Below are positions 3,211 through 42,945 of a stretch of 64,000 bases of DNA, in pieces (positions within the stretch are counted from its first letter, which is position 1; every line of letters starts with the position of its first letter). Where the stretch lies: assembly GCF_040687965.1 (NCBI RefSeq), contig NZ_CP156084.1:572501-636500 (forward strand). Reading direction: 5' to 3'. The stretch comes from Methylocystis echinoides. Lineage in GTDB: Bacteria > Pseudomonadota > Alphaproteobacteria > Rhizobiales > Beijerinckiaceae. Under the pieces are notes generated by a model. That model was given only the letters and a program-made list of their open reading frames with translations, ran no database searches and was not told the DNA's origin. The position numbers and the translations under genes were made by a program.

Positions 3211-5729
3211 CTAAAACTTAACCGTCAAGCCAGCAATGACGTTGCGGCCCATTCCCGGCACAGGGCTCGGAACGGGGAAACGGCTGTAGTTGTAATTCGT
3301 CCAGACCATGTAGCCCGCCATGTTGAAGCCGCCCAGCGCTGGGAAATAGAGTGTATTGGTCAGATTTTCGATCGCGAAGTCGACCCTGAAATTTTGCCAC
3401 TCGTAGCTGCTGCGGAAGTTGAACAGCGTATAGGCGGGGGTCATTTGCTCCGCTCTTTGCACCGACACATGCGTCTTCGCGCCGACCGTGTAAACCTCAA
3501 AAGCGTTCGTCCAGCCGCCCAATTTGTGTTCCAGACCGACGCGCGCGTTTATCGGCATGATGTGGTAGAGACCGTCGCCTGCGCGCTGCGACGAGGTCAG
3601 AATGTAGCATTGCGTATCCTGGTAATAGTCCTGCAGGGTGACATTCTGCCCCGTGGTCGCGAGGCAATTCTGCGGATTGCCACGTCCAGATCGACGCCGT
3701 AAGTGTAACTTACGAGCGCGGTTAGATCGAAGCGACCGAGGCTGTCCTCTTCATAGAGTTTGGCGCGGCCATTGGCGTCGACGCCATAGATGATCGCCCT
3801 GTGGTTGACGAATTGCAGCTCCTGGAACGTATAGGGACCGGCATTGTAGTAGCCGCCAAAGCGGAAGCTGCTGACGCGCTGCGCGTTGATGAAATTATTG
3901 ACGAAGCTGAAATAGGGAGCGATCTTGGCCTCTATGCCGCGCTCCTTGTCCTTGAAGGCCCCCGAAACGGAAACCGTGTGAGCGACTTCCGGTTGCAGGG
4001 CGAGATTGCCGACATAGCCGTTGCCGTCGCCAAACTGATTGATCATCGCCGTCGTCATGGAGCTTACGCCCCAGGAGTAACGCTCATAGAGATTCGGCGA
4101 TCGAGTCTTGCGGGCATAGCCGGCCTCGAAGGCCGTATTTTCGGTCGGCTTGTAGCGAAACTGCGCGGTGATGTTGAAATTCGGATCGAAACGCCGGCGG
4201 TCCTGCTGGTTGAAGAGAGCGGCGGCCGTCGCGTCAGGATTCTGCATCTCTCCCGGGCGCCAGAGATTGCCGGAAGTCAGCATGGGCATGATCGTCGGAT
4301 TGTTGGGATCATACGCCTGGGCCGCGTCGACGTTGGAGAAGACCAGATCGCTGCGCACGCCAAAAAGCGTTTCGAGTTGCGGCGACCAGTTGGTTTCGAC
4401 CTCCGCGTAATGGCTCCAGCGGTTTCGCATTCCGTTTTGGATGTTCCACTGTGTGAAGGGCGTCATCATGAGCATTTTCATGCTGTAGATGTCCGGAAAC
4501 GGCGCCATGAAGGTCGTGTTGTCCAGCATCGTCATCACGCCGCCGCCGGGAATCGGCTCCCACCAGTCGTTCAGCCTGAAGCCATGGAATTCGCTCCCCA
4601 CTCGCAACAGGAGCCGCTCGTCGATCCTGTGATCGAGGTTGATCGAATAGCCGTAATCGAGGCCGGTTGTATCCATCGGCATGTTGTTGGGCTGCTTGTC
4701 CTGCAAGAAACCCATCTTGTGCGCGGTGGAATTCCAGTAGAGACGCGCGTCGACAACGCCCCAGTCGATCGTTCCGTTATATTTGGCCTCGGCCAGATAC
4801 CCCCGGTTCCCGATCATATCCATGCGCTGATTGACGAATCCCTGATAGGGGATGTTTTCGTACGCGACGCGCAGCGACGCCAAATGCCCATCGGCCCGAT
4901 AGGCCAGGGTTCCGGAATGATTCTCGGAAATGAAGTCTGTCGAGAACGCCTCTGCATTGTTTCCGCCTGCGTTGTAATTGCGGCCGCGCGCCCAAGAACC
5001 GTTATAGAGGAAGGCAAAACGATCCATTGCCTCGTTGACCGTCGCCGACGTGCTGATCCCGACGTTGTTCGAGCGATAGGCGCTTGAAATTTCTCCAGAG
5101 GCAAGCATGTTCACGTCCGAACCGTGCGCCCACTTACCCGCCTGGAACAACGGCGCCATCGTCCCGCCGACCTGTTTTTCCTCCGAGGCGCCGGGGCTCC
5201 GCGCCAAAAACACGGGCGATTTCGGCTCTGCAATGATGGTCCCACCGATGGAGTCGCCCCCCTTGCTGACGGGCACGACCCCCGAATAGACCTCTATCTT
5301 CTCGACGTTGTTCGAGCCGGTATAGGAGAGCGGCGGGTTCATATGGTTGGCGCAGGCGGAAGTGATGCTCACGCCGCCCGTGAGAATTTTCACACGATCG
5401 TCCGCAAGGCCCTGGATAACGGGAAGGCGGGAGACGCCGCCCGCTTCATACATGGTGACGCCCGGCGTCCGCTCGAGAAGCTTCGTAGCATCTTCGGACT
5501 GGACGCGCAGAACCTCGATCTTCTGTTCGTCGACGATCGAAGGTCGGCTGATCGGCGCCGTCTCCTGCACGGGCTGTGGCGGCTGCGCCGTCGTCGCCCG
5601 AACGGGCGTCGGCCGGCTTGCGGAAACGTAAAGATCCGGGAGCTTCGTCTGGGCGACGGCCTCCGAAACGGCAAGCCGTCCGACGCCCAGAACAATCGCA
5701 CTGCATGTCAGGAGTCGCGCTTGTAACAT
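3211..5729 (-). pseudogene. OprC-like TonB-dependent copper receptor, two compensating frameshifts
   Basis: The first 675 or so residues form a normal receptor: a signal peptide, a plug domain (IEVLRVQSEDATKLLERTPG onward) and barrel strands. C126 and M130 (in SACANHMNPP) plus H337 and M339 (HKM) reproduce the CxxxM...HxM copper(I) site described for Pseudomonas OprC. After YTYGVDLD (about 3690-3675) the frame is lost and reaches a TGA at 3597. A shifted frame (GNPQNCLATTGQNVTLQDYY) continues sensibly until about 3581-3592. The original frame then resumes with AGDGLYHIMPINARVGLEH and ends in a canonical C-terminal barrel strand (VIAGLTVKF). This equals one missing and one extra base. It may be an assembly error, or real inactivation. 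Product, if intact: outer-membrane, TonB-energised copper uptake. Confidence 0.75.
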
Positions 5730-7133: not shown

Positions 7134-7556
7134 TCAGGTCGAAGGCGGACCTTGCGATGTCCACGTGCTCGCCCAGCCCTCAAGGCCGGATGCGAGCGGC
7201 GGGTCTTCATGCGCATAACTCGGCTGGTTGGCGCTCTCCGGTCGCAGAATCGCCAGCAGGAGGGCCGAAAGCGGCGCGACGACGAGCCCCGAGCCCTTGT
7301 CGCCCGGCATCACGCATGAGGCGCAACTCGTCCCGCCCGCATGCCCGCCCGTGGGTAGGTCCGACTGGGACCCGTCCTTGGCGCATCTGACGCCGGCGAC
7401 CCACTGTGAAAGGGTGACGACCCTGGCGTAGCCCGCGTGACCACCCCCCCGCTCCAGCAGCAAGGAAACGCCCCCTTGAACGACAAGCGAGAAAGCCAGA
7501 GCGACCGCGATGAACGCGGCGGCGCATGACTTTCGACGATGGTCGAGCGTGAGCAT
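7134..7556 (-). CDS. DUF2946-like small exported protein
   Basis: From the ATG at 7556 this is a 140-residue protein (MLTLDHRRKSCAAAFIAVA...). It has an N-terminal hydrophobic segment, a central Gly/His stretch, a CxxC pair (GGTSCASCVMPGDK) and a second short hydrophobic segment (LVVAPLSALLLAIL). The frame is open further upstream, but the extension lacks a good ribosome site and would hide the hydrophobic N-terminus. It is the third small protein of this layout in the first 8 kb and the nearest gene upstream of the barrel and receptor genes on the same strand. The function is unknown, and a metal-related role is suggested only by the CxxC pair and the location. Confidence 0.55.
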   Translation of the reverse strand: MLTLDHRRKSCAAAFIAVALAFSLVVQGGVSLLLERGGGHAGYARVVTLSQWVAGVRCAKDGSQSDLPTGGHAGGTSCASCVMPGDKGSGLVVAPLSALLLAILRPESANQPSYAHEDPPLASGLEGWASTWTSQGPPST

Positions 7557-7841
7557 GGCCGTATATTCGAGAAGCGTCGCCTGAATAGCAACCGCATTCG
7601 GCGCCATGCGCGCAGATCGTGTCCAACTGTTGCTAACCAGCAACGCTCAAGCTATGACGAAGGCGCGGCCTCGGAAATCCCGCGCTCTCACGCCGCCGCC
7701 AAATTGCGTGACGCAGTCGGCTTTTCGGCGTCGCCGGCTTGCGGAGACTGCAACTTTGAGTTGGTGGCCGGAATGCATCAATGCGCCGCCAGTCCGAGCA
7801 ACGCGCGTCCGGGACGACTTTCGTGAGTGGGAGAAAGCCAA

Positions 7842-9149
7842 ATGACGACCGTCGTTGATAACTTCAACCCTGTTCTCACGGGCGTTTACTACGGCGACAG
7901 CAATCAAGACGCTATTTGGGCCGGGCATGGCATGCCGCCCGGCTATCTCGAGAACTTCGATTTCTCGCAGGCCGTTTTTTATAGTTTCGAGCAGATCAAT
8001 TACAACTGGATGGCGATGGACATGCCCGGCAAGGCAACCTTTTCGTCCTCTCAGTTCGGCGACGGCCTTATCGGCAATGACGTGCAAATCTACGGCGCGT
8101 GGGGACGAACGGACTTCATCGTAAACATGGCGAGCGGCGGTTCGCTGAACATGTCGGCCTGGCAGTTCGTACAGGGAAAATACTACAATTGGCTCACCGG
8201 TGAAGATTATGTATTCATCAATGGCGCTCCCGGTAATGAAACGATCATTGGCTCGCCTGTCGCCGACACCTTCGTCTTCAAGGGAAACTCCGCCGACTAC
8301 AAAATTTCTTCGAATGGAGCAGGGGGCTTTATCGTGAGCGACGCAGTCGCCGGTCGCGATGGCCGCGACAGCATTACCGGCGTGGAGTTTCTGCAATTCC
8401 GAGATCAAACGGTCGCGACATCGAGCCTCACTCCTGCGCCCCCCTCGTCGCCCCCGGCGTCGGCGACGCCTCAGCAATTGTTGCTCGGCCTTTATGCGGC
8501 CCTTTATGATCGGGCCGCTGAGATGCCCGGCTATTCCTATTGGGTTGACTACCTCCGCCAGCAACCTGACGCTCGGGGGGTGACATTGGCGAACGCGCAT
8601 GTGGGAAGCACGACGTCGCAAGACGCAAAGGCGCTCGGGCAGGCCTTTGTCACAACCCAGAGCGCCTTCTTCGACGCGACATACGGCAGGTTGAGCGATC
8701 CTCAGTTTGTCGAGGCGCTATACACGAACATCGGCGGGAACGCTGGCGATGCTGGCGGCATTCGATATTGGACCAGCCAATTGCAAGGCCTTCGAAGCGA
8801 GGGCCTGGGCACGCAAGCTGCACGCGCTCAAATCGCCGGCGCATTCGTGCAGGCGATGATCAGTTACGATATTCCCGCAAACGCAGCGAGCCTGTCGTCT
8901 TCAGAATTCCAAGCTGCGGTCGAGCGCCAGGATTCCTTCAAGAACAAGATCGCCGTTTCACTGGCTTATGCGAATGCGTCGGGGCAGACAGGCGGGGAGA
9001 TCCTCGTCCCCCATAGCGTCACGGATGCGGCCTATCAGGCCGCGATACGCGCGATTGATCACGTGACGTTCGACGTCCGCACAGTGAACGTCGCCATTCT
9101 GGGGATCAACAATTCTGTCGCGCATCAGGATCTGTCACTGATCGTCTGA
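7842..9149 (+). CDS. DUF4214-containing surface or secreted protein
   Basis: The ATG at 7842, preceded by GGGAGAAA, gives 435 residues; an upstream in-frame GTG would add five. Residues 1-105 are Tyr/Asn/Gly-rich without family signatures. Around 125-190 a bacterial Hint/RTX-like module appears (GAPGNETIIGSPVADTFVF; ADYKISSNGAGGFIVSDAV), as seen before RTX calcium repeats. After a Pro-rich linker (PAPPSSPPASATPQ), residues 210-370 contain DUF4214 repeats typical of large secreted or S-layer proteins (LLLGLYAALYDRAAEMPGYSYWVDYL). There is no N-terminal signal peptide, so export would probably use a type I system, which is not encoded nearby. A surface adhesin or matrix role is inferred. Confidence 0.75.
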   Translation: MTTVVDNFNPVLTGVYYGDSNQDAIWAGHGMPPGYLENFDFSQAVFYSFEQINYNWMAMDMPGKATFSSSQFGDGLIGNDVQIYGAWGRTDFIVNMASGGSLNMSAWQFVQGKYYNWLTGEDYVFINGAPGNETIIGSPVADTFVFKGNSADYKISSNGAGGFIVSDAVAGRDGRDSITGVEFLQFRDQTVATSSLTPAPPSSPPASATPQQLLLGLYAALYDRAAEMPGYSYWVDYLRQQPDARGVTLANAHVGSTTSQDAKALGQAFVTTQSAFFDATYGRLSDPQFVEALYTNIGGNAGDAGGIRYWTSQLQGLRSEGLGTQAARAQIAGAFVQAMISYDIPANAASLSSSEFQAAVERQDSFKNKIAVSLAYANASGQTGGEILVPHSVTDAAYQAAIRAIDHVTFDVRTVNVAILGINNSVAHQDLSLIV

Positions 9150-36803: not shown

Positions 36804-37442
36804 TCAAAGACGCGCGAACGCGTCGACATGGACGCAGGCGACACGACAGGCGGCGAGGCTTTCGCGCGCAAGGGCGAGCGACCCGTCGCTGTCGATGGCG
36901 CGGGTGGCGTCTTCGACGATCACGGCCTCGAAGCCGAGACGCGTCGCGTCTTCGGCTGAAAAGCGCACGCAAAAGTCGAAGGCCAGCCCCGCGATGAACA
37001 CGCGCGTGAGGCCGCGCTCGCGCAAATAGCCAGCAAGGCCCGTCGGCGTCCTGGCGTCATTTTCAAAAAAAACCGAATAGGAATCGATGTCGCGGTGAAA
37101 TCCCTTGCGCATGATCAGTTCGGCATGGGGGATTGCGAGCGTGGGATGAAAGGCCGCGCCGAACGTTCCCTGCACGCAGTGATCCGGCCAAAGCTCTTGT
37201 TCGCCGTAGGACAGGTCGATGATTTCGAACGGCTTCCGGCCGGGATGTGCAGAAGCAAACGAGACATGCCCGGGCGGATGCCAATCCTGCGTCAGAACGA
37301 CATGGGGAAAGGCGTGGGCAAGCCTGTTGATGCGCGGGATGATTTCGTCGGCATTCGAAATCGCCAGCGCGCCGCCGGGGCAGAAATCATTTTGCACGTC
37401 GACGACGAGGAGCGCGTCGTTCTCGCCGACCTTGTGAGTCAT
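36804..37442 (-). CDS. pncA: Nicotinamidase
   Basis: This 212-residue enzyme hydrolyses nicotinamide to nicotinate in NAD salvage. LLVVDVQNDFCPGGALAI carries the catalytic Asp, QDWHPPGHVSF the metal-binding and substrate His residues, and VFIAGLAFDFCVRFSAEDA the nucleophilic Cys. The lysine is in ELIMRKGFHRDIDSY. It starts at the ATG at 37442, which overlaps the pncB stop codon as ATGA. The upstream open frame belongs to pncB in another frame. The product feeds PncB, encoded in the same operon. Confidence 0.93.
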   Translation of the reverse strand: MTHKVGENDALLVVDVQNDFCPGGALAISNADEIIPRINRLAHAFPHVVLTQDWHPPGHVSFASAHPGRKPFEIIDLSYGEQELWPDHCVQGTFGAAFHPTLAIPHAELIMRKGFHRDIDSYSVFFENDARTPTGLAGYLRERGLTRVFIAGLAFDFCVRFSAEDATRLGFEAVIVEDATRAIDSDGSLALARESLAACRVACVHVDAFARL

Positions 37443-38791
37443 GAAGGCGCCCCTCCCTCCGTGCGGCGATCGACTTCGGAGACCAACGCCCGCAACGCCG
37501 CGCCAATGTCGACGCAGTAGGTGGCGGCGGCGTCGAGCCGCTGCAAGGCGACAGGGAGCTTTGAGAGATTTTCCTTCGCGCGCGCGCGGCTTTCGGCGAG
37601 CGACGGCGTAGGCGCAAGCCGACGGCCCTGCCGCATCACGGAACGCAGCAGAGGCTCGCCTTCGTGCGTGTCGTCTTCCAGCGAAATCACGTCGCCGCAC
37701 ATTCCGCCGTCCGGTCCGAAACGCCGCCACACCTGTTTGCGTCCGGGATAGGTCTCCTTGCCCCTGGAGCGCTTGCGCCGCGCCACGCCCGCATATTCTT
37801 CGAGCTTATACGCGCAGTCGAGCGCGGGCGCATCGGAAGAGGTCGTGAGGCTCGTGCCGATCCCGAACCCGTCGACGGGCGCGCCCGCCTCGATGATGGC
37901 GCGAATGTCCGCGTCATCGAGTCCCCCGCTGACGAGAATGCGGACGTCTTTCAATCCCCCTGCGTCCAGGATCGCGCGCACGCTTTTCGACAAAGCCACG
38001 AGATCGCCGCTATCCAGACGAACCGCCTTGACGCTTACGCCGCGCGCGCCCAAGCCCGGCGCCAGCGCAACGAGCTTCCGCGCCGCGGCTTCCGTGTCGT
38101 AAGTGTCGAGCAGCAACACGAGATCATCGGGATGACTCTCCGCAAAAGCTTCGAAAGCCTTCCTCTCGTCGTCGAAAGCCTGGATGAAGGAGTGGGCCAT
38201 CGTGCCAAAGAGCGGCACGCCGAAACATTTGCCGGCGAGCACTGTGGCCGTGCCGTCATAGCCGGCGAGATAGCTCGCGCGCGCCGCCATCAACCCGGCT
38301 TCGGCGCCGTGGGCGCGGCGCAAGCCGAAATCGACGAGCTGCCGGCCTTGCGCCAGCAGCACATGGCGCGCCGCCTTCGAGGCGATCAGCGACTGAAGAT
38401 GCAGGATGTTGATGAGCCGCGTCTCGACGAGCTGCGCCTGCGGCAGAGGCGCCGTGACGCGCAGAATGGGTTCGTTGGGGAAGAAGACCGTACCTTCGGG
38501 CATGGCGTGCACGTCGCCGGTGAAGCGGAACGCCGCAAGCTGCTCGAGAAAGGCTGCGCCGAACATCCCGGTGCTGGCGAGCCAGTCGATATCCTCTTTG
38601 GAAAAACTGAGAGTTTCGAGAAAGGCGAGCGCCTGCTCGAGCCCCGCCGCCACCAGAAAGCCCCGGCTCGGCGGAAGCCGGCGGACGAAAAATTCGAAAA
38701 CGGCGGTCTCGACGACGTCTTGCGTCAGATAGGCCTCGGCCATCTTCAGCTGATAAAGATCGGTCAGCAGCGAACTCCCGGCGCAGTCCAT
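37439..38791 (-). CDS. pncB: Nicotinate phosphoribosyltransferase
   Basis: This is a 450-residue enzyme that makes nicotinate mononucleotide from nicotinate and PRPP. I start at the ATG at 38791 (MDCAGSSLLTDLYQLKMAEA), which has GGGAGAGAGG just upstream; an earlier ATG is less supported. Motifs of the family are present: SSLLTDLYQLKMAEAYL, DFGLRRAHGAEAGLMAARA, GTMAHSFIQAFDDERKAFE and ILVSGGLDDADIRAIIEAG. It overlaps pncA by four bases, and the STAS gene lies 61 bases upstream on the same strand. All three may share a transcript. Confidence 0.94.
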   Translation of the reverse strand: MDCAGSSLLTDLYQLKMAEAYLTQDVVETAVFEFFVRRLPPSRGFLVAAGLEQALAFLETLSFSKEDIDWLASTGMFGAAFLEQLAAFRFTGDVHAMPEGTVFFPNEPILRVTAPLPQAQLVETRLINILHLQSLIASKAARHVLLAQGRQLVDFGLRRAHGAEAGLMAARASYLAGYDGTATVLAGKCFGVPLFGTMAHSFIQAFDDERKAFEAFAESHPDDLVLLLDTYDTEAAARKLVALAPGLGARGVSVKAVRLDSGDLVALSKSVRAILDAGGLKDVRILVSGGLDDADIRAIIEAGAPVDGFGIGTSLTTSSDAPALDCAYKLEEYAGVARRKRSRGKETYPGRKQVWRRFGPDGGMCGDVISLEDDTHEGEPLLRSVMRQGRRLAPTPSLAESRARAKENLSKLPVALQRLDAAATYCVDIGAALRALVSEVDRRTEGGAPS

Positions 38792-38852
38792 CCTCTCTCC
38801 CTCATCGTCTCGAAGAGGTAACGCGCCGGACGGCGTCATCGAGCGGAAAGTC

Positions 38853-39191
38853 CTAGCCTTGGAGCGCCGCCGCAGCTTCCTGAACGCTCGGATGCGAACC
38901 GAGAATAACGTCGAAGCCGCTTACCGCCATCACCTCTTTGACATTGCCGCGCAGACCGCAAAGCGTCAGCGCGCCGCCCAGCGACTTTGCTTTCTTCGCC
39001 GCAATGAGGAGCGCTCTCAACCCCGCGGAGCTGACGTATTCCACTTGCGAAAAATCGACCACGACCTTGTGGGGGCCGTCGTCGAGCAAGGCCGCACATT
39101 GCTCCTCGAAAGCCGCGGCCGTGCCGCTGTCGATACGGCTCATCGGCCTGACCACGCGCAAGCCGTTCGAAAGCTCATGGGTCAAATCCAT
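38853..39191 (-). CDS. STAS-domain anti-sigma factor antagonist-like protein
   Basis: This is a 112-residue single STAS domain. The phosphorylatable Ser region is VEYVSSAGLRALLIAAKKAK, matching SpoIIAA/RsbV, and the N-terminal part (DLTHELSNGLRVVRPMSRID) forms the first strands. When dephosphorylated, such proteins bind an RsbW-like kinase and release its target. The start at 39191 has GGGGA upstream. The gene diverges, across 117 bases, from a transporter/kinase/phosphatase operon that encodes the other two partner-switch roles, so it is probably their partner. It is followed by pncB on the same strand. Confidence 0.88.
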   Translation of the reverse strand: MDLTHELSNGLRVVRPMSRIDSGTAAAFEEQCAALLDDGPHKVVVDFSQVEYVSSAGLRALLIAAKKAKSLGGALTLCGLRGNVKEVMAVSGFDVILGSHPSVQEAAAALQG

Positions 39192-39308
39192 TTTTACATT
39201 TCCCCGGTGACGGTTATGCAACCGGCACTTATTATCGGACGCCGCCGTAGCTTTAGACCCTCTCCCCGCCGGTCGTCCAGCGGGGGACGTTCTTTTCAAG
39301 GAGCAGAC

Positions 39309-41231
39309 ATGAGCATAGCCGTAGATCGCGCCGGGAGCCCGGTCTCCGTGTCGCAGATCAGCCTGATCGAGGAATTTCTGCTTCTCACCTTAGAGGACAG
39401 CGGCGGCGAATTCGACAGCGTGCCGGAAATCTATCTCAATTGTGGAATCGCCGGCGCGGCCTTGATGGATCTTGCGCTACGCGGGCGTATCGATTCGGAT
39501 CTCGACGGCGTCTACGCCGTGGACGCCGCGTCCACCGGCGACGCGGCGCTCGATACGGCGCTCGCCGAGATCGCCGCCGAGCCGCAGCGTCTCAGCGCGC
39601 AGGGCTGGATCACGCGCCTGTCCCGCCACGCGCCGGCGATGCGCCGGGCGGCGCTCTCCAACCTCTGCGCGCGCGGCGTCTTGCGCCAGAGCGATCACGC
39701 CTTTCTCTGGGTGCTCAAGGGGCGGCGGTATCCTGTGGTCGAGGGGCAGGAAAGGCCGGAGGCGAAGAAGCGCATCCTCGCTTTGCTCTATAATGACGAT
39801 ATCCCGTCGCCGACCGACGTCGCGCTCACGTCGCTCGCCGACGCATGTTTCGTCTTCGAGCGCATTCTGACGCCAAAGGAGTTACAAAGGGTCAAGCCGC
39901 GCATCCGCCAGATCGCGCGCATGGATTTGATCGGGGGCGAGATCGCGCGCACCGCGCATGAGGTCAATCTCGAGACGCGCGCCGCCGAGCGCCGGACCGT
40001 GATCGCCGGCCTCGCCGGCAATGTGATGGAATGGTACGATTTCGGCGTCTATGGCTTCTTCGCCGCCGCGATCGGCTCACAGTTCTTCCCCTCCGACGAT
40101 CCGTCCGTTTCGCTCATCGCCTCTTTCGGCGTATTCGCCGTCGGCTTTATCGCCCGGCCGCTCGGAGGGCTGCTCTTCGGCCATGTCGGCGACCGCCTCG
40201 GCCGTCGCGCCGCCGTCGTCGGCTCGGTCATATTGATGATCATCCCGACGCTGCTGATGTCGCTCCTGCCGACCTATGCGCAGATCGGCCTCGCGGCCCC
40301 TGCCCTGTTGATCCTGTTGCGTCTGGCGCAGGGTCTCGCCGTCGGCGGCGAATATACGACGTCCATGGTGCTGCTGGTCGAGGAAGCGCAGGCGAGCCGG
40401 CGCGGCTTTGTCGGCAGCTTCGCGCCCTTCGGCGCGCTCGGCGGTCTGCTGCTCGGCTCCGCGGTCGGCGCGGCGCTCATGGCGTTCCTGCCGGAGAAGG
40501 CGGCCGCTTCATGGGGCTGGCGCCTCGCCTTTTTTACGGGGCTGCTCATCGGCCTCGTCGTCTTCGTCATTCGCCGCCGCCTGCCGCCCGATCAAGCGAT
40601 CGTGCAGACCGAAGAAGCGCGCAAATCGCCGGTTTTCGAGGCCTTCCGCACGCAATGGCGCACCATCCTCAAGGTCGTGGGCTTCACGCTCGGCAACGGC
40701 GTCGGTTTCTATCTCTGCTTCGTCTATGTCTCGACCTGGCTCAAGGAACAGCAGCATCTTTCCGCCTCCACGGCGCTGACGCTCAACAGCATCGCGATCT
40801 TCTTCATGCTGATCTTCACGCCGCTCGCCGGCGCGCTCTCCGATAAAATCGGCCGCAAGCCCGTGCTGATGGCCGGCGCCCTCGGGCTCGCGCTCTTCGC
40901 CTGGCCGCTCTTCCGGCTGATGAGCGTCCCGCATCTCGGCGCCATCCTGCTTGGACAATGCGCCTTCGCGCTGTTCATGTCGGGCTATGGCGCGAGCCCC
41001 GCGTTTCTCGTCGAGGCCTTCCCCAAGCATGTAAGATGTTCCGGCCTCTCGATCGGCTATAATCTCTCGCTCTCGGTCTTTGGCGGAACGGTGCCCATGG
41101 TCGCAGTCTTCCTTACCAAGATCACCGGCAATCCGCTCGCGCCCGCCTTCTACCTGTCGCTCGCCGCGCTCATTTCGCTCGCCATGGCGACCCTGATCGG
41201 CGGCGACGCCGAAACGCAGGAGGCGTCTTGA
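39309..41231 (+). CDS. GPP34 (GOLPH3-like) domain fused to MHS-type MFS transporter
   Basis: This 640-residue protein has two unrelated parts. Residues about 16-215 fit the GPP34/GOLPH3 family: SLIEEFLLLTLEDSGGEF, an ALMDLALRGRID helix and LSRHAPAMRRAALSNLCARG with basic surfaces. RPEAKKRILALLYNDDIPSP and FERILTPKELQRVKPRIR follow. In eukaryotes this fold binds phosphatidylinositol-4-phosphate. Residues 228-635 are a 12-helix metabolite/H+ symporter: GNVMEWYDFGVYGFFAAAIG, GHVGDRLGRRAAVVGS, RLAQGLAVGGEYTTSM and SDKIGRKPVLMAGAL. This is the ProP/ShiA/KgtP type. No stop codon or shift separates the parts. AAGGAG precedes the ATG. It overlaps the next gene by four bases. The substrate is unknown. 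Confidence 0.85.
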   Translation: MSIAVDRAGSPVSVSQISLIEEFLLLTLEDSGGEFDSVPEIYLNCGIAGAALMDLALRGRIDSDLDGVYAVDAASTGDAALDTALAEIAAEPQRLSAQGWITRLSRHAPAMRRAALSNLCARGVLRQSDHAFLWVLKGRRYPVVEGQERPEAKKRILALLYNDDIPSPTDVALTSLADACFVFERILTPKELQRVKPRIRQIARMDLIGGEIARTAHEVNLETRAAERRTVIAGLAGNVMEWYDFGVYGFFAAAIGSQFFPSDDPSVSLIASFGVFAVGFIARPLGGLLFGHVGDRLGRRAAVVGSVILMIIPTLLMSLLPTYAQIGLAAPALLILLRLAQGLAVGGEYTTSMVLLVEEAQASRRGFVGSFAPFGALGGLLLGSAVGAALMAFLPEKAAASWGWRLAFFTGLLIGLVVFVIRRRLPPDQAIVQTEEARKSPVFEAFRTQWRTILKVVGFTLGNGVGFYLCFVYVSTWLKEQQHLSASTALTLNSIAIFFMLIFTPLAGALSDKIGRKPVLMAGALGLALFAWPLFRLMSVPHLGAILLGQCAFALFMSGYGASPAFLVEAFPKHVRCSGLSIGYNLSLSVFGGTVPMVAVFLTKITGNPLAPAFYLSLAALISLAMATLIGGDAETQEAS

Positions 41232-41656
41232 CGGACGCTCCTCAAACGCGGCGCGCCGGCTTCAGCCTCGCGGCCGGAGACATTCAGACGGCGGTCGCCT
41301 GGATCGCCTCTGAAGCGCGCGCGCTCGGCGCGACGGAGCGGCAGTCCTTCGGCGCGCAGCTTTGCGCCGAAGAGCTTCTCGTCAACGCCATGAACCACGG
41401 CGGGCGAGAGCGGTTGGCGGTGGCTATCGCTCTGGATCGCCTCCCCGACAGGCTTCGTCTGCGCCTCGAGGACGATGGCGCAGCCTTCGATCTTCTCGAC
41501 GCGCCGGAGAGGAGGAGCGATCCGTCCCTAAGCCAATCGCGGCCAGGCGGTTGGGGCGTCTCGCTTGTCCGGCGCTTCGCCGATCGCATCGAGTGCAACC
41601 GGTTTGAAGGCGCAAACGTCGTTGTCCTCGAATTTATCGAAGGCGGCGAGCCATGA
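41228..41656 (+). CDS. RsbW-like serine kinase/ATPase (HATPase_c_2)
   Basis: This is a 142-residue protein with a TTG start that overlaps the preceding stop (TTGA), indicating translational coupling. It has the GHKL ATPase motifs of anti-sigma kinases: the N box QLCAEELLVNAMNHGG, G1 LEDDGAAFDLL and G2 RPGGWGVSLVRRFAD. It lacks a HisKA domain, so it is a Ser/Thr-type switch kinase that would phosphorylate a STAS partner, as SpoIIAB or RsbW do. Its likely partner is the divergent STAS protein (38853-39191). What it restrains (a sigma factor or the fused transporter) is unknown. No sigma factor gene is adjacent. Confidence 0.88.
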   Translation: MTDAPQTRRAGFSLAAGDIQTAVAWIASEARALGATERQSFGAQLCAEELLVNAMNHGGRERLAVAIALDRLPDRLRLRLEDDGAAFDLLDAPERRSDPSLSQSRPGGWGVSLVRRFADRIECNRFEGANVVVLEFIEGGEP

Positions 41657-42945
41657 CGCAGCCGGGCGCGAATCCCTTCGAACTCTTGGACGGCGCGACG
41701 CGCGACGCGATCCGGAGCCTCGTCGCGAGCGCACGGAAGCTCGACCTGCAGCCCGGCGAGACGCTGGTGCGACAAGGCGATCAGAGCGACTCCGCCTTCT
41801 TTCTCGATGAGGGCGCCGTGCAAGTTTTTGCGGAGACGGCCTATGGCGCCGCGCCGCTCGCCATCCTGGAGGCGCCACGGCTCATCGGCGAAATCGGCGC
41901 CCTCGCCGGCTTGCCGCGCACGGCGAGCATGACGGCGGCGACGCCCGTGCGCCTCTATGAGATCGGACGCGTCGAGCTTCTCGAACTCGGGCGCCAGTCG
42001 CCCGAGCTTCTGCTGAAGGCGCTGGAGCAGCTCGGCCGTCAGCTCGGCGCCGTCAACGAAGCGCTCGGGCTTTATTCCAACGCGCTCGCCGCGCTCGAGC
42101 AACGCAAATTCGACAGCCGCATTCTCGAGGATCTCGGCAATCCGCCGCCCGCCCTCGCGACTTTCGCCGCGGCCTTCCGCCGCTTCGCCACCGAGATCGT
42201 CCGCAAGAGGCGCCGCGAGGATGAAATGGCGAGCGCCGCGCTCATTCAGCAGTCGCTTCTTCCCAAGGACGCGGCGATCAATCGCCGCCGCTCCGATGTG
42301 GAAATCGCGGCGCGCATGCGGCCCGCGCGCGAGGTCGGCGGCGACTTCTACGATTTTTTCATGCTGGACGACGACCGGCTCGCCTTCGCGATCGGCGACG
42401 TCTGTGGAAAAGGCACGCCAGCGAGTCTTTTCGCCTCGATTGTCGTCACGCTTCTGAGAACGCTCGGCCGCGACCGGCAGGATGTCGGCGAGATCGTCAA
42501 TCGCGCGAATGCCCTGCTCTGCGAAGAGAACGACGCCGCCATGTTCGCGACCGTTTTTTTCGGCGTCCTCGACTTGCGCACCGGCGCGTTGCGCTACGCC
42601 AATTGCGGACATGTGCCGCCGGCGCATGTCTCGTCAGCTGGCGCTCTCACGCGCCTCTTGTCGACTGGCGCGGCGCTCGGGATCGACGCAAGCTGCGTCG
42701 CGCGTATGGCCGAGGCGCAGCTCGAACCGGGCGATCGACTGATCCTCGTCACGGACGGCGTCACCGAAGCGATGAATGCGGCGAAGGAGGAGTTCGGCGA
42801 GAGCGGCTTCGTGCAGACGGTTCAAGCTGAGCCGGCGTTGGCGCCCGCCGCGTTGATGTCCCGGGTCTTTACAGCGGTCGACGATTTCGCGCAGGGCGAA
42901 GAACAGGCCGACGACATCGGCTGTCTTGTGATTGAGCGAAAATAA
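41653..42945 (+). CDS. cNMP-binding domain plus SpoIIE/RsbU-type phosphatase
   Basis: This is a 430-residue protein. Residues about 10-130 form a cyclic-nucleotide-binding beta roll (LVRQGDQSDSAFFLDEGAVQVF, then LIGEIGALAGLPRTASMTA). A helical linker (about 130-205) follows. Residues 215-428 are a PP2C-like SpoIIE domain with metal-binding Asp residues in VGGDFYDFFMLDDD, IGDVCGKGTPAS, VTDGVTEAMNA and DDIGCLVI. Such phosphatases dephosphorylate STAS proteins; here nucleotide binding may control the activity. It overlaps the kinase gene by four bases. It completes a kinase, phosphatase and STAS set with the GPP34-MFS protein as first gene. Confidence 0.9.
   Translation: MTQPGANPFELLDGATRDAIRSLVASARKLDLQPGETLVRQGDQSDSAFFLDEGAVQVFAETAYGAAPLAILEAPRLIGEIGALAGLPRTASMTAATPVRLYEIGRVELLELGRQSPELLLKALEQLGRQLGAVNEALGLYSNALAALEQRKFDSRILEDLGNPPPALATFAAAFRRFATEIVRKRRREDEMASAALIQQSLLPKDAAINRRRSDVEIAARMRPAREVGGDFYDFFMLDDDRLAFAIGDVCGKGTPASLFASIVVTLLRTLGRDRQDVGEIVNRANALLCEENDAAMFATVFFGVLDLRTGALRYANCGHVPPAHVSSAGALTRLLSTGAALGIDASCVARMAEAQLEPGDRLILVTDGVTEAMNAAKEEFGESGFVQTVQAEPALAPAALMSRVFTAVDDFAQGEEQADDIGCLVIERK

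What the first reader, a model, noticed from the sequence alone, without database searches (positions are those of the whole stretch)
38853..42945. Partner-switching module built around a GPP34-MFS transporter
Seen: a single-domain STAS protein (Ser in VSSAGL) diverges from three translationally coupled genes: GPP34-MFS, an RsbW-like ATPase with a TTGA junction, and a cNMP-binding/SpoIIE phosphatase. Known: STAS plus RsbW plus SpoIIE components form partner switches that normally control a sigma factor. Inference: here the switch lacks an adjacent sigma factor and starts with a transporter, so it may control transporter activity or localisation, with a cyclic nucleotide as input. I know of no described system with this composition, but have not searched.
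Basis: partly seen in the sequence, partly recalled or inferred. Interest (0 to 1): 0.82.

Follow-up and report, generated by a model that had tools for sequence, protein, structure and literature searches.

The report
GPP34 (GOLPH3-like) transporter with phospho-switch
An alphaproteobacterium carries a small protein-phosphorylation switch next to a transporter fused to a bacterial cousin of the human Golgi protein GOLPH3, and some related bacteria keep parts of the same switch right beside a GOLPH3-like protein that has no transporter attached, which gives a testable first guess at what these bacterial GOLPH3 relatives do.

Summary
Observation confirmed. The window holds a single-domain STAS protein (38853-39191, -), diverging from three overlapping genes: GPP34-MFS (39309-41231), an RsbW-like ATPase (41228-41656, TTG start) and a cNMP-SpoIIE phosphatase (41653-42945). 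Acceptor Ser, kinase N-box, phosphatase motifs and cyclic-nucleotide motif look intact; dN/dS is 0.12-0.30. The exact four-gene order occurs in 3 of 17 GPP34-MFS loci, all near relatives; 8 of 17 show no switch gene in the stretch read. The wider result: the more constant partner is GPP34, not the transporter. In an even draw of 385 alphaproteobacterial genomes (the window's included), 12 of 46 GPP34 genes (8 genera, 7 families) have STAS within 200 bp, against 0.15 expected within 1 kb; RsbW lies within 5 kb of 7, SpoIIE of 3. A Na/Pi cotransporter gene joins the set in 6 loci. No SigB/F/G sigma reaches the curated cut-off in 13 of 13 genomes. 0 of 15 actinobacterial GPP34 genes show a STAS neighbour. 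Best reading: a non-sigma partner switch whose output is the GPP34 domain, here tied to a transporter. Binding is not shown; GOLPH3's PI4P residues are mostly lost (1 of 4 kept). New variant of a known kind.

The parts
38853..39191 (-). Single-domain STAS protein (anti-sigma-antagonist type), 112 aa; divergent from the operon
   Evidence: Pfam STAS 69.8 bits; NCBIfam TIGR00377 64.3 bits over cut-off 53.45; PDB SpoIIAA/TM1442 matches
39027..39029 (-). Codon of Ser55, the predicted phospho-acceptor (second Ser of VSSAGL)
   Evidence: aligned with the Ser of MDSAGL in TM1442 and the first Ser of MDSSGL in SpoIIAA; present in 19 of 19 GPP34-adjacent STAS proteins
39309..41231 (+). GPP34-MFS fusion, 640 aa: GPP34 at residues 19-214, MHS-type MFS transporter from about residue 220
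   Evidence: AlphaFold model mean pLDDT 80.3, one continuous helix 207-259 joins the two parts (pLDDT 67-69 at 221-240)
41228..41656 (+). RsbW-like HATPase_c_2 protein, 142 aa, TTG start overlapping the previous stop; N-box Glu49/Asn53
   Evidence: HATPase_c_2 60.9 bits; alignment to RsbW 6m36 E 0.0011; N-box alignment
41653..42945 (+). cNMP-binding / SpoIIE (PP2C-type) phosphatase, 430 aa
   Evidence: SpoIIE 163.5 bits, cNMP_binding 58.8 bits; GE...PRTA motif aligned to a PKA regulatory subunit; phosphatase acidic residues aligned in 8 of 8 proteins

Best explanation
The four genes encode a partner-switching phospho-relay whose output is a GPP34 (GOLPH3-like) domain instead of a sigma factor. 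The RsbW-like kinase phosphorylates the STAS protein on Ser55; the SpoIIE phosphatase, gated by a cyclic nucleotide on its cNMP domain, removes the phosphate. One phospho-form of STAS (most likely the unphosphorylated one, as in SiaC and SypA) binds the GPP34 domain and so changes the conformation, membrane seating or oligomeric state of the protein; in this organism the GPP34 domain is joined by one long helix to the first transmembrane helix of an MHS-type transporter, so the switch would turn transport of an unknown small metabolite up or down. Shown here: the genes, intact catalytic and acceptor motifs, purifying selection, recurrent linkage of GPP34 with STAS and RsbW, absence of a SigB/F/G sigma over the cut-off. 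Inferred: all binding, phosphorylation and transport steps, and which phospho-form is active. An equally open sub-version is that RsbW itself holds GPP34, as it holds a sigma factor, and STAS frees it.
For: Domains and intact motifs. STAS within 200 bp of 12 of 46 GPP34 genes in an even draw of 385 alphaproteobacterial genomes, 0.15 expected within 1 kb (11 of 45 without the window's own); RsbW within 5 kb of 7 of 46 (0.20 expected), SpoIIE of 3 of 46 (0.17 expected). In 11 of the 12 the STAS and GPP34 genes point the same way. STAS adjacency is scattered over the alphaproteobacterial part of the GPP34 tree (12 changes, at least 8 forced by starred branches). Acceptor Ser in 19 of 19 GPP34-adjacent STAS. 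A second transporter family, Na/Pi cotransporter, joins the set in 6 loci. No SigB/F/G sigma over the cut-off in 13 of 13 genomes; 1 of 14 control genomes is over it. Precedents for non-sigma outputs: SiaC-SiaD, HsbA-HsbD, BgrV-BgrR (passages of PMC8457831), SypA (passage of PMC8256260), MlaB on an ABC transporter (passages of PMC7367683).
Against: 34 of 46 GPP34 genes in the same draw have no STAS within 5 kb. 8 of 17 GPP34-MFS loci show no switch gene in the stretch read. A same-genus genome with the fusion (G584; L168 and L192) has STAS but no RsbW or SpoIIE in the 19.5 kb read; the rest of that genome was not searched for them. 0 of 15 actinobacterial, 0 of 2 non-alpha and 0 of 4 further alphaproteobacterial GPP34 genes have STAS nearby. 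No natural STAS-GPP34 fusion among the 120 best of 3572 matches. GPP34-adjacent STAS proteins are not one clade (9 changes). Na/Pi-RsbW-STAS sets also occur without GPP34 nearby (G159, G182), so linkage to transporters does not always pass through GPP34. No complex could be modelled.
Confidence: 0.5

Rival explanations
1. The GPP34-MFS protein is an input, not an output: a transporter or transceptor whose substrate state is read by the switch, which then acts on an unlinked target such as a diguanylate cyclase.
For: Some sets carry further sensor genes: periplasmic binding protein and HAMP histidine kinase beside RsbW-SpoIIE-GPP34-STAS (L127) and SpoIIE-GPP34 (L125). Alphaproteobacterial BgrV controls a diguanylate cyclase (PMC8457831 passage).
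Against: The window's switch already has an input domain (cNMP); stand-alone GPP34 with STAS has no transporter part to read.
Confidence: 0.22
2. STAS is a constitutive structural partner of GPP34 (as MlaB is of MlaF), and RsbW and SpoIIE act on it only in some lineages.
For: STAS is beside GPP34 more often (12 of 46) than RsbW is within 5 kb (7 of 46) or SpoIIE (3 of 46); L168, L111, L114, L119, L121, L131 have STAS without RsbW in the stretch read.
Against: The acceptor Ser is kept in 19 of 19 adjacent STAS, also where no RsbW is close; RsbW-type genes exist elsewhere in the genomes of L111/L114, L119, L121 and L131 (G289, G288, G366, G341).
Confidence: 0.15
3. An ordinary sigma-factor partner switch whose sigma is encoded elsewhere; GPP34-MFS is just a co-transcribed passenger.
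For: STAS, RsbW-like and SpoIIE parts are the classic set; the genome has sigma factors that match the SigBFG model below its cut-off.
Against: No match over the SigBFG cut-off in 13 of 13 genomes; STAS sits beside GPP34 across 8 genera and 7 families.
Confidence: 0.08
4. The linkage has no functional meaning (chance, or shared ancestry counted many times).
For: Related genomes inflate the count; only 8 of 21 GPP34-bearing genera carry the pair.
Against: 12 of 46 against 0.15 expected; all 12 are within 200 bp, and widening to 5 kb adds no further GPP34 gene; gene order differs between families.
Confidence: 0.03

Closest known systems
SigB-type partner switch (RsbV/RsbW/RsbU with sigma-B; SpoIIAA/AB/E with sigma-F)
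   Same: STAS with conserved acceptor Ser, GHKL-type kinase, PP2C-type phosphatase
   Different: no sigma among the genes scanned; no SigB/F/G sigma over the curated cut-off in 13 of 13 genomes; a GPP34-MFS gene takes the place of the target
Non-sigma partner switches: SiaABCD and HsbA/HsbD (Pseudomonas aeruginosa), BgrV-BgrR (Sinorhizobium meliloti), SypA/SypE (Vibrio fischeri)
   Same: STAS phospho-state controls a non-sigma or unknown effector (passages)
   Different: in the passages seen the effectors are diguanylate cyclases or unknown; no GPP34 protein or transporter is named there
MlaB, a STAS protein of the MlaFEDB ABC transporter
   Same: a STAS protein regulates a transporter by direct binding; a phosphomimetic at the equivalent site weakens binding (passages of PMC7367683)
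   Different: ABC ATPase partner and no GPP34; phosphorylation in cells is not shown there
GOLPH3 / Vps74 (Pfam GPP34)
   Same: same domain family (3kn1 at E 1.9e-16 with the profile of 19 fusions); a hairpin with hydrophobic residues lies where GOLPH3 has its membrane hairpin (by eye)
   Different: PI4P residues W81, R90, R171 replaced (P39, A48, P109), only R174 kept (R112) (residues named in passages of PMC4414131 and PMC13408441)
SCO4440, GOLPH3-like protein of Streptomyces coelicolor
   Same: bacterial GPP34 protein with a membrane/cell-envelope phenotype (PMC12402492 passages)
   Different: next to a D-Ala-D-Ala carboxypeptidase; actinobacterial GPP34 genes read here have no STAS neighbour (0 of 15)

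Membership tests
SigB/F-type partner switch | single-domain STAS with phospho-acceptor Ser/Thr | tested here: met
   TIGR00377 64.3 bits over 53.45; Ser55 aligned with the TM1442 and SpoIIAA sites
SigB/F-type partner switch | RsbW/SpoIIAB-type kinase with intact N-box | tested here: met
   HATPase_c_2 60.9 bits, Glu49 and Asn53 aligned; but the RsbW equivalog models score under their cut-offs
SigB/F-type partner switch | PP2C-type SpoIIE/RsbU phosphatase | tested here: met
   SpoIIE domain 163.5 bits, acidic residues present in 8 of 8 aligned; the SpoIIE equivalog model is under its cut-off
SigB/F-type partner switch | cognate SigB/F/G sigma factor | tested here: not met
   0 of 13 genomes over the TIGR02980 cut-off; the best matches lie in frames of RpoD- and RpoH-like length
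Non-sigma partner switch (SiaABCD/BgrV kind) | STAS binds a non-sigma effector in a phospho-dependent way | not testable with these tools
   needs binding and phosphorylation assays
Non-sigma partner switch (SiaABCD/BgrV kind) | diguanylate cyclase effector encoded in the set | tested here: not met
   none among the four genes and the three flanking genes scanned
GOLPH3/Vps74 (GPP34) as a PI4P effector | GPP34 domain over Pfam cut-off | tested here: met
   136.8 bits, cut-off 29.1
GOLPH3/Vps74 (GPP34) as a PI4P effector | PI4P-binding residues W81, R90, R171, R174 | tested here: not met
   1 of 4 kept (R174 as R112); P39 and A48 are invariant in the 19 fusions aligned
MHS family metabolite/H+ symporter (TIGR00883) | score over the curated cut-off | tested here: not met
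   375.9 bits, cut-off 443.45, yet the best of 29 families: MHS-like, not filed as a member

The most novel reading that the evidence does not exclude
GPP34 domains in Alphaproteobacteria are a class of partner-switch output: reversible Ser phosphorylation of a STAS protein sets how a GOLPH3-like domain engages the membrane or a membrane protein, so that bacteria control transporters after translation with anti-sigma-factor machinery. The Golgi adaptor GOLPH3 would then have bacterial relatives that already work as regulated membrane-protein adaptors.
Probability: 0.35. Interest if true: 0.85.

Novelty: new variant of a known kind. Interest (0 to 1): 0.62.

Why it matters
Bacterial GPP34 proteins have almost no assigned function; the one experimental paper found says they had not been described in prokaryotes before (PMC12402492 passage). 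A recurrent, tight link to partner-switch genes gives a concrete, cheap set of binding and phosphorylation tests. If right, it adds a new kind of output (a GOLPH3-like domain, and through it transporters) to partner switching, and offers a bacterial model of how this domain is regulated.

Tried and rejected
1) GPP34-STAS natural fusion: searched with a joined STAS+GPP34 query; the top hit P0125 proved to be a tandem GPP34-GPP34 protein without STAS; the other 119 listed of 3572 show only PF05719 in the precomputed column and lengths of 208-228 aa. 2) 'RsbW' beside GPP34-MFS in L006: rejected for the gene at 3545-4690, a GAF-HisKA_2 histidine kinase; the second weak match there (7177-8739, 520 aa) was not scanned and not counted. 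3) STAS in L012, 874 bp from GPP34-MFS: a 779-aa STAS-TCAD9 protein, not a single-domain gene; not counted as a switch component, though it is one of the 22 STAS-labelled rows of the tree. 4) GPP34 linkage outside Alphaproteobacteria: 0 of 15 actinobacterial genes with STAS (one, L178, has a HATPase ORF 1.3 kb away), 0 of 2 non-alpha Pseudomonadota. On those flanks only session HMMs built from alphaproteobacterial seeds were run, not Pfam; matches below the GPP34 cut-off (5, 4, 1) were not followed. 5) One dedicated STAS clade: not found. 6) Structure: the 50 rows shown for the model of the fusion are MFS-type transporters, so the GPP34 fold rests on sequence profiles. 7) Papers: ten searches. 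No held paper has both 'GPP34' and 'partner switching' or both 'GPP34' and 'STAS'; in the other, partly capped listings I saw no title, abstract or count that links GPP34/GOLPH3 to a partner switch. 'GPP34' mostly returns the unrelated Bt toxin Gpp34. Subscription papers are not held.

Counting choices: I used the 38 best rows (45 bits or more) as RsbW type, from a listing that was itself cut, 32 of 37 rows (five weak ones dropped), rows of one gene were merged to 19 genes and one sub-cut-off row dropped, 47 rows merged to 46 genes, three of them short or partial (G313, G261:C1:645765, G065:C202). The window's own genome is in the draw. L133 was dropped from the tree as the same contig as L007 (equal length). 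The 19 proteins of A1 were picked by me among matches that carry both domains; some of the 120 listed lack GPP34.
Full report
WHAT IS IN THE WINDOW. A 112-aa single-domain STAS protein lies at 38853-39191 on the minus strand. Diverging from it are GPP34-MFS (39309-41231, 640 aa), an RsbW-like HATPase_c_2 protein (41228-41656, 142 aa) and a cNMP-binding/SpoIIE phosphatase (41653-42945, 430 aa), joined by TTGA and ATGA overlaps. The three flanking genes scanned (RtcB, nicotinate phosphoribosyltransferase, and a protein with a GDSL match under its cut-off) have no evident link.

ARE THE PARTS INTACT? STAS passes the anti-sigma-antagonist model TIGR00377 (64.3 bits, cut-off 53.45). Its Ser55, the second Ser of VSSAGL, aligns with the Ser of MDSAGL in TM1442 and with the first Ser of MDSSGL in SpoIIAA; that these are the phosphorylated residues is recalled, and SypA Ser56 and BtrV Ser55 are given as such sites in a passage of PMC8256260. 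The ATPase keeps the N-box Glu49/Asn53 (that this is the catalytic box is recalled) but scores under the RsbW equivalog cut-offs and matches RsbW 6m36 only at E 0.0011, so it is RsbW-like. The phosphatase keeps the acidic positions of the PP2C motifs in 8 of 8 aligned proteins (their metal role is recalled). The cNMP domain has the GE...PRTA signature, aligned with a PKA regulatory subunit, kept in 4 of 4 window-type proteins (window, L002, L003, L005); the genome has six PF00211 cyclase matches. dN/dS against L005 and L002 is 0.146 and 0.182 (STAS), 0.124 and 0.128 (GPP34-MFS), 0.270 and 0.301 (RsbW), 0.206 and 0.216 (SpoIIE).

THE FUSION. GPP34-MFS proteins are common among the 120 listed of 4253 matches; I aligned 18 of them, chosen to carry both parts, with the window's protein. 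The scan of named genomes returned 80 loci, of which 14 (L002-L015) have GPP34 with MFS by session HMMs and the other 66 an MHS-type transporter without GPP34. The model (mean pLDDT 80.3, 19 sequences) shows one continuous helix, residues 207-259, running from GPP34 into the first transmembrane helix, with pLDDT 67-69 at 221-240. Against GOLPH3, residues W81, R90 and R171 become P39, A48 and P109, and only R174 is kept as R112; that these four bind PI4P is stated in passages of PMC4414131 and PMC13408441. So this is a GPP34 domain, but PI4P binding in the GOLPH3 manner is not expected.

HOW FAR DOES THE SET OCCUR? Among 17 distinct GPP34-MFS loci (L002-L015, the window, L168, L169) the exact four-gene order occurs in 3 (window, L002, L005). 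In L003 the three switch genes are 3.5-4.4 kb away; L008 and L013 have all three in other orders within 5.2 kb; L009 and L014 have an extra GPP34, STAS and RsbW downstream; L168 has STAS only. The other 8 (L004, L006, L007, L010, L011, L012, L015, L169) show no convincing switch gene in the stretch read: L006 has a histidine kinase, L012 a 779-aa STAS-TCAD9 protein, and some contigs are short.

THE MORE CONSTANT PARTNER IS GPP34. In an even draw of 385 alphaproteobacterial genomes (the window's included) 29 have GPP34: 47 rows, 46 genes after merging. STAS, RsbW, SpoIIE and Na/Pi genes were located in the same 29 genomes. STAS lies within 1 kb of 12 of 46 GPP34 genes (0.151 expected, Poisson P 2.7e-19), in fact within 200 bp in all 12; widening to 5 kb adds no further GPP34 gene; 11 genomes, 8 of 21 genera, 7 families. 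RsbW lies within 5 kb of 7 of 46 (0.200 expected), SpoIIE of 3 of 46 (0.168), Na/Pi of 2 of 46 (0.072). The P value ignores relatedness. In 11 of the 12 pairs STAS and GPP34 point the same way and GPP34 is stand-alone; the window is the divergent exception. Two of the 46 genes are MFS fusions (G000, G264). A seed-free clustering of neighbours put STAS (22 loci, a mixed cluster with 14 of 23 members recognised as STAS), RsbW (7), SpoIIE (6) and Na/Pi (6) among the most recurrent families, level with an MMPL-type family (6) next to GPP34-P450 genes. On a tree of 82 GPP34 domains the STAS label (22 rows, L012 among them) is spread through the alphaproteobacterial part (12 changes, at least 8 forced, shuffled mean 19.6). 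Ser is kept in 19 of 19 adjacent STAS, which do not form one clade (9 changes against 16.5 shuffled); the own genome's second STAS (C1:1971477, with RsbW and, across a glutamate dehydrogenase gene, a PAS-SpoIIE gene) falls in another group.

TRANSPORTERS. A Na/Pi cotransporter family gene (PF02690 in the member scanned, about 550 aa) is part of the set in 6 loci: L008, L009, L013, L014, L139, L140. In L139 and L140 it overlaps the RsbW gene by 4 bases. In G159 and G182 a Na/Pi gene is next to RsbW and STAS without GPP34 close by; overall 4 of 19 Na/Pi genes are within 1.5 kb of RsbW, 0.034 expected. So two transporter families recur with these switches, which favours an output at a transporter but shows that GPP34 is not always the link.

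NO SIGMA. The SigBFG model finds nothing over its cut-off in 13 of 13 genomes; the best matches lie in frames of about 650-730 aa and 300-350 aa, the lengths of RpoD and RpoH (identity by length only, recalled). One of 14 control genomes is over the cut-off. This speaks against a classic sigma target.

OUTSIDE. 0 of 15 actinobacterial GPP34 genes, 0 of 2 non-alpha Pseudomonadota and 0 of 4 further alphaproteobacterial genes from the phylum draw have STAS within about 6 kb by session HMMs. In the own family GPP34 over the cut-off is rare: 3 of 248 genomes, the window's among them.

KNOWN WORK. Partner switches with non-sigma outputs are known: SiaC-SiaD, HsbA-HsbD, BgrV-BgrR (passages, PMC8457831), SypA (passage, PMC8256260); the STAS protein MlaB binds an ABC ATPase (passages, PMC7367683). 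Streptomyces SCO4440 is the one bacterial GOLPH3-like protein with published experiments that I found (passages, PMC12402492). No held paper has 'GPP34' with 'partner switching' or with 'STAS', and the listings of the other eight searches (several capped) showed no link.

VERDICT. I file it as a new variant of a known kind: a partner switch of the non-sigma sort whose most likely output is a GPP34 domain, here attached to a transporter. The mechanism is inferred from linkage and intact motifs; no binding was tested.

Noticed in passing
L143:4679-6784, L145:5962-8046; similar long ORFs in L144, L146, L147, and L148 (480 aa, no P450 match): GPP34 fused to a cytochrome P450 domain (Pfam in L143 and L145; L148 shows GPP34 alone); in these six loci a neighbour belongs to a family whose scanned member is an MMPL transporter.
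   Followed up: partly
P0125: A 444-aa protein made of two GPP34 domains in tandem.
   Followed up: no
L191:7472-14196 (own genome C1:1971477 onward): A second STAS-RsbW pair in the own genome, followed by an NAD-glutamate dehydrogenase gene and a PAS-SpoIIE gene.
   Followed up: partly
G159:C23:167915-170371 and G182:C1:778754-780406: Na/Pi cotransporter gene next to RsbW and STAS without GPP34 close by: a possible separate partner switch on a phosphate-type transporter.
   Followed up: partly
L127:480-7044 and L125:1128-6695: The GPP34 set is followed by genes for a periplasmic binding protein and a HAMP histidine kinase, suggesting another input than a cyclic nucleotide.
   Followed up: partly
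L012:4734-7073: A 779-aa STAS-TCAD9 protein diverging from GPP34-MFS, 874 bp away.
   Followed up: partly
L142:3724-4260 and the same cluster in L135, L151, L153, L168: Chromate-transporter family gene near GPP34 in five loci (Pfam run on one member).
   Followed up: no
window 36804-38839: A nicotinate phosphoribosyltransferase gene (37439-38839) beside an ORF that looks like a nicotinamidase (36804-37730; by eye, not scanned): a possible NAD salvage pair.
   Followed up: no
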